Shown in pieces: positions 8,510-11,365 of a stretch of DNA of 39,585 nt. This DNA is from Lactiplantibacillus xiangfangensis. Lineage in GTDB: Bacteria; Bacillota; Bacilli; Lactobacillales; Lactobacillaceae. The notes under the pieces are model-generated. The model was not told the origin of the DNA and searched no databases. It saw only the letters and a list, made by a program, of their open reading frames with translations. A program made the translations under genes and the position numbers. Location: NCBI RefSeq assembly GCF_001438845.1, contig NZ_JQCL01000053.1, forward strand, positions 1-39,585. The letters are read 5' to 3'. Numbering within the stretch: the first letter of the stretch is position 1; every line of letters starts with the position of its first letter.

Positions 8510-9226
8510 TTAGTCGCGGCTTGAGCCGGCAAAGATTTGAATGAAGTACAAGAACAAGTTAACGAAGTCCAAGTACAATTGTAAAGCACCAGTAACAGCT
8601 AACCCAGTTGAAGAAACCTGGTCACCGTATTGCAAGTACATTTTCCGCATGTTGTTGCTATCCCACATGGATAACCCGGCGAAAATTAAGACACCGATAT
8701 ATGAGAAGATGTAGCTGATCATTTCGCTTTGCAAGAACAAGTTAACGATTGAAGCGACGATTAACCCAATCAAAGCGGCAAATAAATGCGTCCCTAATTT
8801 TGAGATGTCACGCTTCGTCGTATTACCAATCACGGCCATGGTTCCAAAAACGGCCGTTGCGGCGACAAAGGCCCCGCCAATCGTTGCGCCAGTATACAAC
8901 TGCAACGTGACGGACATTTCAACACCAAATACCACCGCGAAGACCATTAGTAACGTAAAGCTCATCGCAGGATTGCGTGTCGCATTTTTCTGAATCCCAC
9001 CGATCATCACAAACATGCTGACAATGAAAATCATCAAGAACCAGAATGGATGGGCCGCAAACGCACTGTTGATAGCTTCAGCGAACACTGTCATCGACAG
9101 GTAAGCCGTAATAGCGGAAACTAATACGGCTAACGCCATGAAACCGTACATCTTGGATAAGAAACTGCGTAGCCCAATCTGGGTGTTAATCGTACGCGGT
9201 TGCGGATCATTTTGAAAGTTGTTCAT
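8510..9226 (-). CDS. Bax inhibitor-1 / YccA-YetJ family membrane protein
   Basis: 238 residues with seven hydrophobic segments after a polar N-terminus. The family look is clear: FLSKMYGFMALAV at the first span, internal Gly/Ala-rich spans, and a C-terminal QLYLDFVNLFLYFIQIF segment before a short tail. Bacterial relatives include the pH-sensitive calcium-leak protein YetJ and the FtsH partner YccA; which role applies here cannot be told. It appears monocistronic, with its own terminator downstream and a long upstream region. That region holds a small hairpin (9312-9318 with 9332-9338) whose loop carries GAGGAGGT on the transcribed strand. Confidence 0.9.
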   Translation of the reverse strand: MNNFQNDPQPRTINTQIGLRSFLSKMYGFMALAVLVSAITAYLSMTVFAEAINSAFAAHPFWFLMIFIVSMFVMIGGIQKNATRNPAMSFTLLMVFAVVFGVEMSVTLQLYTGATIGGAFVAATAVFGTMAVIGNTTKRDISKLGTHLFAALIGLIVASIVNLFLQSEMISYIFSYIGVLIFAGLSMWDSNNMRKMYLQYGDQVSSTGLAVTGALQLYLDFVNLFLYFIQIFAGSSRD

Positions 9227-9512
9227 CGATTATCCCTCTTCCACCTAAAATTTAATTAGATTATTAATTCCGAGTTAAAGCTCTCATTGAGTCTTCAGAT
9301 GCCACCAACGCCTAGCGTCAGTGACCTCCTCACGCTAGTTTATCAATCAAATGCACTTTTCTAGCCATCTCAATCAGACACCTCAACTTTCTTGTCATCT
9401 AGTGTATCAGATTAGTCAGGGAAGGTAAAACAGTTTGTACTAGATAAATATATAAGATTTTCTTATATTCAGCACTTCTCAAATTACCACCAGCGACCGT
9501 AACAACCGCTTC
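9227..9512. other. gene-free upstream region of the Bax-inhibitor gene
   Basis: No credible gene here. It contains the hairpin CTAGCGT/ACGCTAG (9312-9338) in the probable leader of the Bax-inhibitor gene, and an AT dyad ATATAAG-ATTTT-CTTATAT (9450-9468). Confidence 0.5.
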
Positions 9513-9671
9513 GGCGGCCAACCTCGGTGTGCTAAGGGGAACGGTCCCAGCCACAGGACGGTCTGGAACCTCGATTCAAAGACGATACCCCACGTCTTTG
9601 AATCGTCCCGCAAGATTGACGTAAAATTCGCCCGCCAATCTTGCCGACACAGCACACCGAGGCTGCCCGCC
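9513..9671. repeat. multi-branched inverted-repeat element A
   Basis: A 21-bp outer stem (9513-9533 with 9651-9671, two mismatches; the inner 12 bp CCTCGGTGTGCT are perfect) encloses three hairpins. These are 9544-9551/9563-9570, a perfect 13-bp stem 9572-9584/9593-9605, and a perfect 9-bp stem 9610-9618/9636-9644. GC content is higher than in the surrounding intergenic DNA. It holds no gene. It could be a structured RNA or a DNA-level repeat; the strand is unknown. Confidence 0.75.
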
Positions 9672-9717
9672 TTCGCTAAAATTAGTTTTACTATTGTTAT
9701 TTTGTCGAATAATCAGA

Positions 9718-9884
9718 GGTCGGCGCGATAACATCGGTCGTGAAGGTGGTGTTGGCCGATGGTTTTTCGGTCTTACACCACGGACGGTCCGGGACAGCTG
9801 TCATTTAAAGAGTGTCCCGGGCGAGGAGCTAGACCACTTCCAGGCTAGCCCCGGTCCCACGACCACATGTTATCAGCGCCGACC
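9718..9884. repeat. multi-branched inverted-repeat element B
   Basis: Same architecture as the neighbouring element A. The long outer stem has three parts: 9718-9726 with 9876-9884, one bulged A, then 9727-9734 with 9867-9874, and further in 9736-9742 with 9858-9864. Three hairpins lie inside: 9746-9752/9775-9781 extended by 9754-9759/9767-9772; 9789-9796/9813-9820; and 9825-9832/9845-9852. A 94-codon plus-strand frame crosses it, but its sequence simply follows the stems. It shares the 14-mer GGACGGTC-n-GG-n-AC with element A on the same strand. Confidence 0.75.
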
Positions 9885-9905
9885 GGACGAGATACATAAG
9901 ACACT

Positions 9906-9944
9906 AAAAAATCCCTTAGAAGTCAGACTCCTAAAGGATTTTTT
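9906..9944 (-). terminator. intrinsic terminator after murC
   Basis: A hairpin of AAAAAATCC...TTAG pairing with CTAA...GGATTTTTT lies 45 bases past the murC stop and ends in a T-run on the minus strand. It separates murC transcription from elements A and B. Confidence 0.75.
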
Positions 9945-9988: not shown

Positions 9989-11302
9989 CTATTTCATTTC
10001 TTCTTCGTAACGTTTTTCGTATTTTTGAATATCGCCGGCACCCATAAAGACGACCACGGCATCGTGGTAAGCTTCCAAGGCGTGCATGTCGTCCATCGTG
10101 ATGATTTCACCGCCATTAGGTAACTTGGCTGCTAAGTCCTTCGACGAAACGTCGCCAGATTCTTCACGCGCTGAACTAAAGATGTTCGTTAAGAACACGT
10201 GATCCGCCTTGCTTAAACTCGTCGCAAAACCATCCATTAAAGCCTTCGTCCGTGAATAAGTGTGAGGTTGGAAAACTGCCAAAATTTCCTTGTCTGGATA
10301 CTTTTGACGAGCAGCATCCAAGGTTGCTTTGATTTCAGATGGATGGTGCGCATAGTCGTCGATCAGCATCATTCCGCCACCAACTTGGTGTTCAGAGAAA
10401 CGGCGTTTGACCCCACTAAAGTTCAGTAGTTCACGCCGAATTTCATCCAAGTTGACCTTTTCGAAGTAAGATACCGCAATGACAGCCGTACTGTTCAGCA
10501 CGTTATGTTCACCAAACAATGGAATTTCGAATTCGCCAAGGGATTCGTCATGGTACTTCACTTCAAAGGAAGAGCCTTTCGTGGTCCGTTTAATGTTGAC
10601 CGCCTGGAAATCATCACGGTCGCTAGTGCCGTAATAGTAAATTGGCGTTTTAACGTCTAACTTGCGGAGACTTTCGTCGTCACCCCAAGCAAAGATTCCC
10701 TTTTTAACTTGGCTACCGAACTGTTCAAATGCAGATTGAACGTCGGCTAAGTCCTTGTAATAATCTGGGTGATCAAAGTCCACGTTAGTCATGATGGCGT
10801 AGTCGGGATGGTAAGCCACAAAATGACGACGGTATTCGTCAGCTTCAAAGACGAAGAAGCGGGCATCTGGTGTCCCCTTCCCGGTCCCATCACCAATTAA
10901 GTAACTGGTTGGGGCAATGTGGCTCAAGACATGGGAGAGCAATCCGGTCGTTGACGTCTTACCGTGAGTTCCCGCTACCCCAATACTCGTGTAACCTTCC
11001 ATCAATTTACCTAAGAATTCATGGTAACGGTAAACGGGAAGCCCCATCGCACGCGCCTTTTTAATTTCAGGATGTTCGTCGGTAAAGGAATTACCAGCAA
11101 TCACCGTTAAGCCTTCATGAATGTTGTCAGCAGAAAATGGCAACATTTTAATGCCAGCGGCGGCTAACCCCTTTTGCGTAAACGTGTATTGTTCAATATC
11201 GGAACCTTCCACTTGGAAGCCCTTATCATGCAAAATTAAGGCGAGGGAACTCATCCCAGAGCCCTTGATTCCAACAAAATAATAAACCGTTGCTTTATCC
11301 AT
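9989..11302 (-). CDS. murC: UDP-N-acetylmuramate--L-alanine ligase
   Basis: 437 residues from ATG at 11302 (site GGGAG upstream). MurC adds L-Ala to UDP-MurNAc, the first amino acid of the peptidoglycan stem, using ATP in the cytoplasm. The N-terminal UDP-binding loop GIKGSGM is at 11-17 and the ATP loop GTHGKTST at 111-118. The central domain carries [12 protein letters not shown] and the C-terminal domain [11 protein letters not shown], both typical. It is third in ytpR-sftA-murC, the order also known from Bacillus subtilis. Confidence 0.96.
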
Positions 11303-11365
11303 TATTATCTTAATCTCCCGTGTTCGCAATTCATCAATTAAGCGGTGAATCGGTCTTTATTTAAA

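What the first reader, a model, noticed from the sequence alone, without database searches (positions are those of the whole stretch)
9513..9884. Twin multi-branched structured elements between murC and a Bax-inhibitor gene
Seen: two adjacent ~160-base elements, each with a long outer stem (21-25 bp) closing exactly three hairpins, several perfect (13, 9, 8 bp). They differ in sequence but share a 14-mer GGACGGTC-n-GG-n-AC on the same strand (9556-9569 and 9782-9795). They lie in 760 gene-free bases after the murC terminator. Two unrelated sequences with the same fold suggest selection on structure: paired structured RNAs, or a family of DNA-level repeats/MITEs. I know no named family that fits.
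Basis: partly seen in the sequence, partly recalled or inferred. Interest (0 to 1): 0.7.

Follow-up and report, generated by a model that had tools for sequence, protein, structure and literature searches.

The report
Terminator-hugging mobile cloverleaf repeat pair
The two folded elements are one inverted pair of the same roughly 170-base cloverleaf-shaped module, a mobile repeat found perhaps a hundred times in this Lactiplantibacillus genome and also in related genera, which is often found just behind the stop signals of genes.

Summary
Modules A (9508-9676) and B (9714-9889) are diverged inverted copies of one cloverleaf module, here called E. A model built from B modules alone finds A on the opposite strand (71.8 bits). 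In other genera single stretches match the A model on one strand and the B model on the other. Adjacent modules there point apart in 22 of 23 cases. The fold is selected: 53 of 56 pairs show changes on both sides across 68 sequences of mean identity 54%. Several Lactiplantibacillus genomes give about 100 module matches; 35 of 251 genomes of the family, in 8 of 40 genera, are hit. Rfam has no match.

In Lactiplantibacillus many copies sit inside a MITE: 14-bp terminal inverted repeats, 7-9-bp duplications (13 of 21 end pairs), and an autonomous IS4-family element with the same ends in a relative. Of 95 exact ends, 21 lie just behind an intrinsic terminator. The window copy sits behind the murC terminator and lacks these ends.

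What the conserved fold does, as RNA or single-stranded DNA, is unsettled.

The parts
9508..9676 (-). Module A: one copy of the E cloverleaf module, E strand on minus. Outer stem plus three hairpins, including a perfect 13-bp hairpin.
   Evidence: R2 (A model) plus 173.4 bits (R2 was built with this copy included); R1 (B model, no A rows) minus 71.8 bits at 9508-9675; R3 minus 124.6 bits (R3 was built with this copy included); fold z -10.75
9677..9713 (.). AT-rich linker between the two divergent modules
   Evidence: Read directly; alignment of 22 copies from the same genome
9714..9889 (+). Module B: the second copy of E, E strand on plus
   Evidence: R1 plus 154 bits (R1 was built with this copy included); R3 plus 134.1 bits; fold z -8.1
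9556..9569 (+).
   Evidence: Read directly; the same-strand match of the two consensuses has E 0.21
9782..9795 (+). Second copy of the 14-mer, in module B; same strand as the first, so not what the inverted homology predicts
9906..9944 (-). Intrinsic terminator of murC; the B end of the element begins 16 bases past it
9989..11329 (-). murC, the gene whose terminator the element follows
   Evidence: orthologues
8510..9226 (-). Bax-inhibitor-family membrane protein gene, downstream neighbour
   Evidence: orthologues

Best explanation
The stretch is one copy of a large family of non-autonomous mobile elements. Its core is a divergent inverted pair of a ~170-base module, E, that folds into a three-hairpin cloverleaf. 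SHOWN: A and B are inverted paralogues; the fold covaries and has fixed unpaired residues; the family is multi-copy in several genera of the family. SHOWN: in Lactiplantibacillus many copies are framed by ~70-85-base ends with 14-bp terminal inverted repeats and 7-9-bp target duplications, the same ends as an IS4-family element in a relative, and a sizeable share of these ends lie just past the T-run of an intrinsic terminator. INFERRED: the IS4 transposase moves the framed copies in trans; landing behind a terminator keeps the insert out of genes and mostly untranscribed. INFERRED: the window copy descends from a framed insertion that lost its ends, since the sibling species keeps a degraded TIR-like end at this very site. 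INFERRED and weakest: the fold is kept because the E strand acts as a folded single strand (transcript or transposition-stage ssDNA) recognised by a protein through its fixed junction and hairpin-3 residues.
For: Copy number: (44 blastn matches, 40 of 118 candidates scored). Inverted homology: B model on A: minus 71.8, plus 9.1 bits; B read backwards 28.9; 79 of 81 weak profile matches on minus; (13 A modules of Lactiplantibacillus hit; in the 12 loci that hold both, on the strand opposite to B). Covariation: (0 of 500 shuffles reach any measure). Fixed unpaired residues. Ends: 20 left-end and 25 right-end matches in the own genome; TIR pattern 11, 34, 16 and 27 times in four genomes, reversed control 0 in all four; 13 of 21 end pairs with a duplication, control 1.4%. 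Transposase: (460 bits, cut-off 250). Target: (21 of 95 ends have an inward terminator, T-run always 11-27 nt away, none at 28-170; outward control 19, scattered 27-137). Site history.
Against: No relative of the IS4 transposase was found at E 1e-20 in the window's own genome, nor in G004, G009, G014, G018, so trans-mobilisation rests on shared ends. The window has no TIR at 12 of 14 or better. In 20 loci from other genera only three scattered single 12-of-14 matches were seen, so how the core spread there is unknown. Of five IS copies with these ends only the G020 one follows a terminator, judged by eye, and 74 of 95 ends show no detected inward terminator, so part of the pattern may be survival of harmless insertions. 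The convergent-gene excess shrinks against other gene pairs of the same loci (74 of 270 convergent). Orthologous copies show block changes resembling gene conversion, which can mimic compensatory change. Solo modules in tandem context are, if anything, antisense to the genes (15 to 6, p 0.08), which does not favour a read-through RNA role.
Confidence: 0.78

Rival explanations
1. REPIN-like element: the inverted pair itself is the mobile unit, moved as folded single-stranded DNA by an HUH (RAYT/TnpA-type) nuclease; the IS4 frame is a later, genus-specific addition.
For: 22 of 23 adjacent modules in other genera are divergent pairs, some of them orthologues of each other; no pair of IS4-type ends in 20 such loci; in genus g39 similarity among copies ends at about the module edges; fixed unpaired residues and structure outlast sequence.
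Against: No HUH transposase was searched for. Modules are ~170 nt, REPs 20-40 bp. Loci with one detected module are common (14 of 36 distant loci).
Confidence: 0.3
2. Host-adopted 3'-end element: the folded modules insulate or stabilise 3' ends between convergent genes, as has been proposed for some extragenic palindromes.
For: 72 of 144 classifiable copies lie between convergent genes, against 12 of 190 neighbouring gene pairs in the murC region and 74 of 270 other pairs of the same loci (p 1.6e-20 and 8e-6); terminator proximity; four copies kept in place between two sibling species at about 90% identity.
Against: Placement is also what harmless insertion predicts (stated for pneumococcal repeats, passages seen). 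In 16 distant loci classified, 4 are convergent. Four of nine shared sites are re-occupied or rearranged and one element is probably inverted.
Confidence: 0.15
3. The fold is maintained by DNA-level processes (template switching between hairpin arms, gene conversion among copies) without selection.
For: Block-like differences between orthologous copies; many copies within one genome.
Against: Does not predict fixed unpaired residues or wobble pairs tilted to one strand of E in both modules (394 to 260 events, p 1.8e-7 if events are independent; per-pair sign tests only p 0.08 and 0.13).
Confidence: 0.12
4. A pair of stand-alone small RNA genes specific to the murC region.
For: Strong folds on the E strand.
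Against: About a hundred module matches in the genome; no promoter-like site in the linker at this locus (consensus scan); in 17 named murC loci a module lies between murC and its neighbour in two only (L063, L078).
Confidence: 0.04

Closest known systems
Bacterial MITEs, e.g. RUP, NEMIS/Correia, QMITE2
   Same: Short, non-coding, multi-copy, intergenic, strongly folded, with TIR and short duplications (passages of PMC10969869 and PMC3733652); here an IS with the same ends exists
   Different: The interior is an inverted pair of a covarying cloverleaf with fixed unpaired residues, found in other genera without this TIR frame
BOX, RUP and SPRITE repeats of Streptococcus pneumoniae
   Same: BOX is modular (A-B-C); all are over-represented between convergent genes (passages of PMC3049150)
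   Different: Different size and modules; no Rfam match here; insertion at the T-run of terminators is not described in the passages seen
EFAR / Efa-1 of Enterococcus faecalis
   Same: Efa-1 is 163 bp, intergenic and folded (passages of PMC2267715). From recall of an abstract not held here, EFAR target stem-loop sequences
   Different: Efa-1 is described as a pair of adjacent stem-loops, not a cloverleaf; sequences not compared. The EFAR paper is not held
REPINs with RAYT transposases
   Same: Inverted pair as a unit, extragenic repeats with within-genome populations (search listing and abstract starts only; details recalled)
   Different: REPs are 20-40 bp palindromes; no RAYT was tested; TIR and duplications of the framed copies fit a DDE element
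IS4 family of insertion sequences
   Same: The autonomous partner has a 457-aa IS4-family transposase
   Different: The repeat carries no transposase; five of six plasmid-borne relatives examined have left ends CTGAAACTTGAAAG instead

Membership tests
MITE (framed copies) | Terminal inverted repeats | tested here: met
   YTAAAGGTTGAAAG, 88 exact sites in four genomes, reversed control 0
MITE (framed copies) | Target site duplication | tested here: met
   11 of 17 framed repeats and 2 of 4 IS copies, 13 of 21 in all; control 1.4%
MITE (framed copies) | Autonomous element with the same ends | tested here: met
   G020 IS, 1567 bp; an uninterrupted frame with the same ends also in G008; none found in the window's genome
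MITE (window copy itself) | Own TIR | tested here: not met
   No 12-of-14 match in the window; the sibling's copy at the same site has a 12-of-14 end
IS4 family (partner) | Transposase matches the family model above cut-off | tested here: met
   NF049925 460 bits, cut-off 250
REPIN/RAYT | Inverted pair as the common unit | tested here: met
   22 of 23 adjacent pairs divergent, orthologous duplicates included
REPIN/RAYT | Short REPs (20-40 bp) | tested here: not met
   Modules are 160-180 nt with three hairpins
REPIN/RAYT | RAYT transposase in carrier genomes | not tested
Any Rfam 15 family | Score at or above gathering threshold | tested here: not met
   Window and 20 distant loci: 0; best sub-threshold E in the element region 0.28
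EFAR / Efa-1 | Sequence and two-stem-loop fold | not tested
   No EFAR sequence at hand

The most novel reading that the evidence does not exclude
E is an undescribed structured nucleic-acid family of the Lactobacillales: a ~170-nt cloverleaf with fixed junction and hairpin-3 residues (AGAC...GGCU on the E strand), propagated as divergent twins in up to about a hundred copies per genome, working as a folded RNA or ssDNA that a partner protein recognises, and re-packaged in Lactiplantibacillus inside an IS4-type MITE that homes to the end of transcription terminators.
Probability: 0.45. Interest if true: 0.8.

Novelty: new variant of a known kind. Interest (0 to 1): 0.62.

Why it matters
Small folded repeats are known in many bacteria, but an elaborate multi-branched fold kept by covariation across genera, in inverted pairs, with fixed unpaired residues, points to recognition by structure. 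Insertion at the end of intrinsic terminators would give a transposon many safe sites. The carriers include Levilactobacillus brevis and several Lactiplantibacillus species, so transposition, transcription and structure probing are directly testable.

Tried and rejected
Rfam: nothing at gathering level, nothing convincing below it. Plasmid and phage collections: no DNA match to the element.

A first set of module rows was contaminated by reverse-complement hits of the same palindromic elements. The counts are superseded and are not used here; the orthologous-pair counts were not redone.

RNA strand: wobble pairs tilt to the E strand, but this cannot tell RNA from ssDNA and is not significant pair by pair. 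Promoter in the linker: only a consensus scan at one locus, no support. Terminator targeting as a property of the wider IS4 group: not clear in six plasmid copies. A terminator scan within 220 nt of all module edges in Lactiplantibacillus did not separate directions (75 inward, 63 outward of 305 sides; random positions 16 and 19 of 197). The sharp signal appears when measured from exact TIR ends and near the edges in distant genera (15 of 59 edges within 60 nt, random 38 of 1098).

My first check of the murC site used blastn only and saw the element in L063 alone; the covariance model later showed a module there in L078 too.

Papers: the listings showed no title or abstract start describing this family; only passages were read, of PMC10969869, PMC3049150, PMC3733652 and PMC2267715. 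Most subscription papers are absent from that library, so absence from print is not established.

Full report
OBSERVATION. They fill part of a 762-base gap between murC and a Bax-inhibitor gene, both on the minus strand; the B end begins 16 bases past the murC terminator. A covariance scan of the whole window finds these two modules only, on opposite strands.

ONE MODULE, TWICE, INVERTED. Covariance models were built from 32 B modules (R1) and 32 A modules (R2). In the window R1 scores 154 bits on B and 71.8 bits (E 1.5e-18) on A on the minus strand, but 9.1 on A plus; B read backwards gives 28.9. R2 finds B on minus with 50.1 bits and on plus with 2.8, though it also gives 51.8 on A read backwards, so the R1 result carries the weight. 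A sequence-only profile of B hits A rows 79 times on minus and twice on plus, each weakly (E up to 10 allowed, best 0.0025). In loci from other genera the same stretch is hit by R2 on one strand and R1 on the other, e.g. L364 with 111 and 108 bits. So A and B are diverged inverted copies of one module E. Adjacent modules in distant loci are divergent in 22 of 23 cases and tandem in one; 14 of 36 loci hold a single detected module. Some of the 36 are orthologues of each other, and three of 39 fetched distant loci (L366, L371, L411) were left out of this count. In named murC-region loci R3 shows four further adjacent pairs, all divergent: L063, L070, L072, L077.

SELECTION ON THE FOLD. With reverse-complement artefacts removed, 125 A rows and 123 B rows from six genomes have 88.0% and 87.6% Watson-Crick cells, against 73.7% and 77.2% after column shuffling. 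On terminal branches, changes on both sides of a Watson-Crick pair kept Watson-Crick pairing in 80 of 84 cases (A) and 81 of 92 (B). Formal counts on 32 sequences each: B 27 pairs with changes on both sides against 13.5 shuffled; A 33 against 18.3. The combined 68-sequence alignment, mean identity 0.54, has 53 of 56 pairs and 1054 cells with changes on both sides against 297 shuffled cells; 0 of 500 shuffles reach any measure. That alignment was fitted to the R1 structure and contains at least two palindromic artefact rows (L041 1497-1669 plus, L047 1704-1874 minus), so it leans towards the structure; slid controls pair only 34-40% of cells. Twenty-two unpaired columns are at least 85% conserved, including a motif of hairpin 3. 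Wobble pairs arise more on the E strand in both modules (394 against 260 events), but pair-wise sign tests are not significant.

DISTRIBUTION. The own genome has 44 blastn matches with 40 of 118 candidates scored. Each model hits 15 of 21 Lactiplantibacillus genomes at E 1e-3. In the family 35 of 251 genomes and 8 of 40 genera are hit by R2 at E 1e-6, with at most 11 candidates scored per genome. In the order, R3 hits 27 of 395 genomes and 11 of 80 genera; 8 of these genomes lie outside the family, with best scores of 37-51 bits, and were not inspected. Blastn with the window element saw one genus only, 13 of 41 genomes, and no plasmid or phage record.

THE MOBILE FRAME. In Lactiplantibacillus many copies carry extra ends: a left ~70-base and right ~85-base stretch ending in CTAAAGGTTGAAAG-type inverted repeats, around A-B, A alone or B alone (20 left-end and 25 right-end matches in the own genome). 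Exact TIR matches: 34 in G020, 27 in G011, 16 in G009, 11 in G000; reversed control none. Thirteen of 21 end-to-end pairs have a 7-9-bp duplication (11 of 17 repeats, 2 of 4 IS copies); the shuffled control is 1.4%. G020 holds an IS of 1567 bp whose left end matches the TIR at 13 of 14 and right end at 14 of 14, with duplication ATAGGAG and a 457-aa IS4-family transposase. Relatives of the transposase occur in 7 of 41 genomes searched at E 1e-20, five of them in this genus (G008, G011, G017, G019, G020); those in G011, G017 and G019 are interrupted; none is in the window's genome.

TARGET. Of 95 distinct TIR-pattern ends, 21 have an intrinsic terminator reading into the end, T-run start 11-27 nt away and none at 28-170; outward-reading ones number 19 and scatter from 27 to 137. 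The 95 include chance matches and both ends of elements, of which at most one need follow a terminator. T reaches 62-66% at positions -11 to -13. Copies lie between convergent genes in 72 of 144 classifiable cases (153 instances, 9 at edges), against 12 of 190 neighbouring pairs in the murC region of 13 species (p 1.6e-20) and 74 of 270 other pairs in the same loci (p 8e-6), using simple ORF calls. In tandem context twins run A to B against the genes in 29 of 39 cases (p 0.003); solo modules have E antisense in 15 of 21 (p 0.08). In 16 distant loci classified, 4 are convergent.

SITE HISTORY. In 17 named murC loci a module lies between murC and its neighbour in two: the sibling species L063, as an interior-deleted form, and Levilactobacillus cerevisiae L078, 97 bits, 117 bases past murC. 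In one of the others (L071) the neighbour gene was not found. L078 suggests that this terminator region was occupied more than once, or very long ago. The sibling copy keeps a 12-of-14 TIR-like end between terminator and element; the window has none. Among 22 loci of the sibling, 9 match fetched window-genome loci: four are true orthologues at about 90%, one (L342/L033) is likely inverted in place at 84%, four are re-occupied or rearranged.

JUDGEMENT. Shown: a mobile, multi-copy, structure-conserved family, inverted twin architecture, IS4-type frame with shared ends, terminator-proximal insertion for a share of ends. Inferred: trans-mobilisation, the reason for terminator choice, and the function of the fold.

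Noticed in passing
window 9227-9430, minus strand: The leader of the Bax-inhibitor gene holds a block (ACAAACTGTTTTACCTTCCCTGACTAATCTGATACACTA and following) closely similar, by eye, in the Lactiplantibacillus loci printed, amid otherwise diverged intergenic sequence; no Rfam match. Possible conserved promoter and 5' leader.
   Followed up: no
L063:5182-5352: A second module fragment near murC in the sibling species also lies beside a 12-of-14 TIR match.
   Followed up: partly
L078:7862-8030: Levilactobacillus cerevisiae has an E module in its own murC to Bax-inhibitor gap.
   Followed up: partly
G007 (L. fabifermentans) and G015 (L. mudanjiangensis): Large diverged subfamilies: 128 and 130, and 128 and 126 module matches with R1 and R2, about the scoring cap, while blastn gave 4 and 1.
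   Followed up: no
L344-L349 (plasmids of lactic acid bacteria): IS4-family relatives at about 49-51% identity; five of six have left ends CTGAAACTTGAAAG, and one (L344) sits after a T-run with a duplicated flank.
   Followed up: partly
L342 and L033: An element apparently inverted in place between two sibling species (84% identity in reverse complement, L033 the best match of L342 among fetched loci).
   Followed up: partly
G298, G373, G394, G322, G404, G434, G440, G562: Weak but full-length R3 matches outside the family, up to four per genome with six candidates scored.
   Followed up: no
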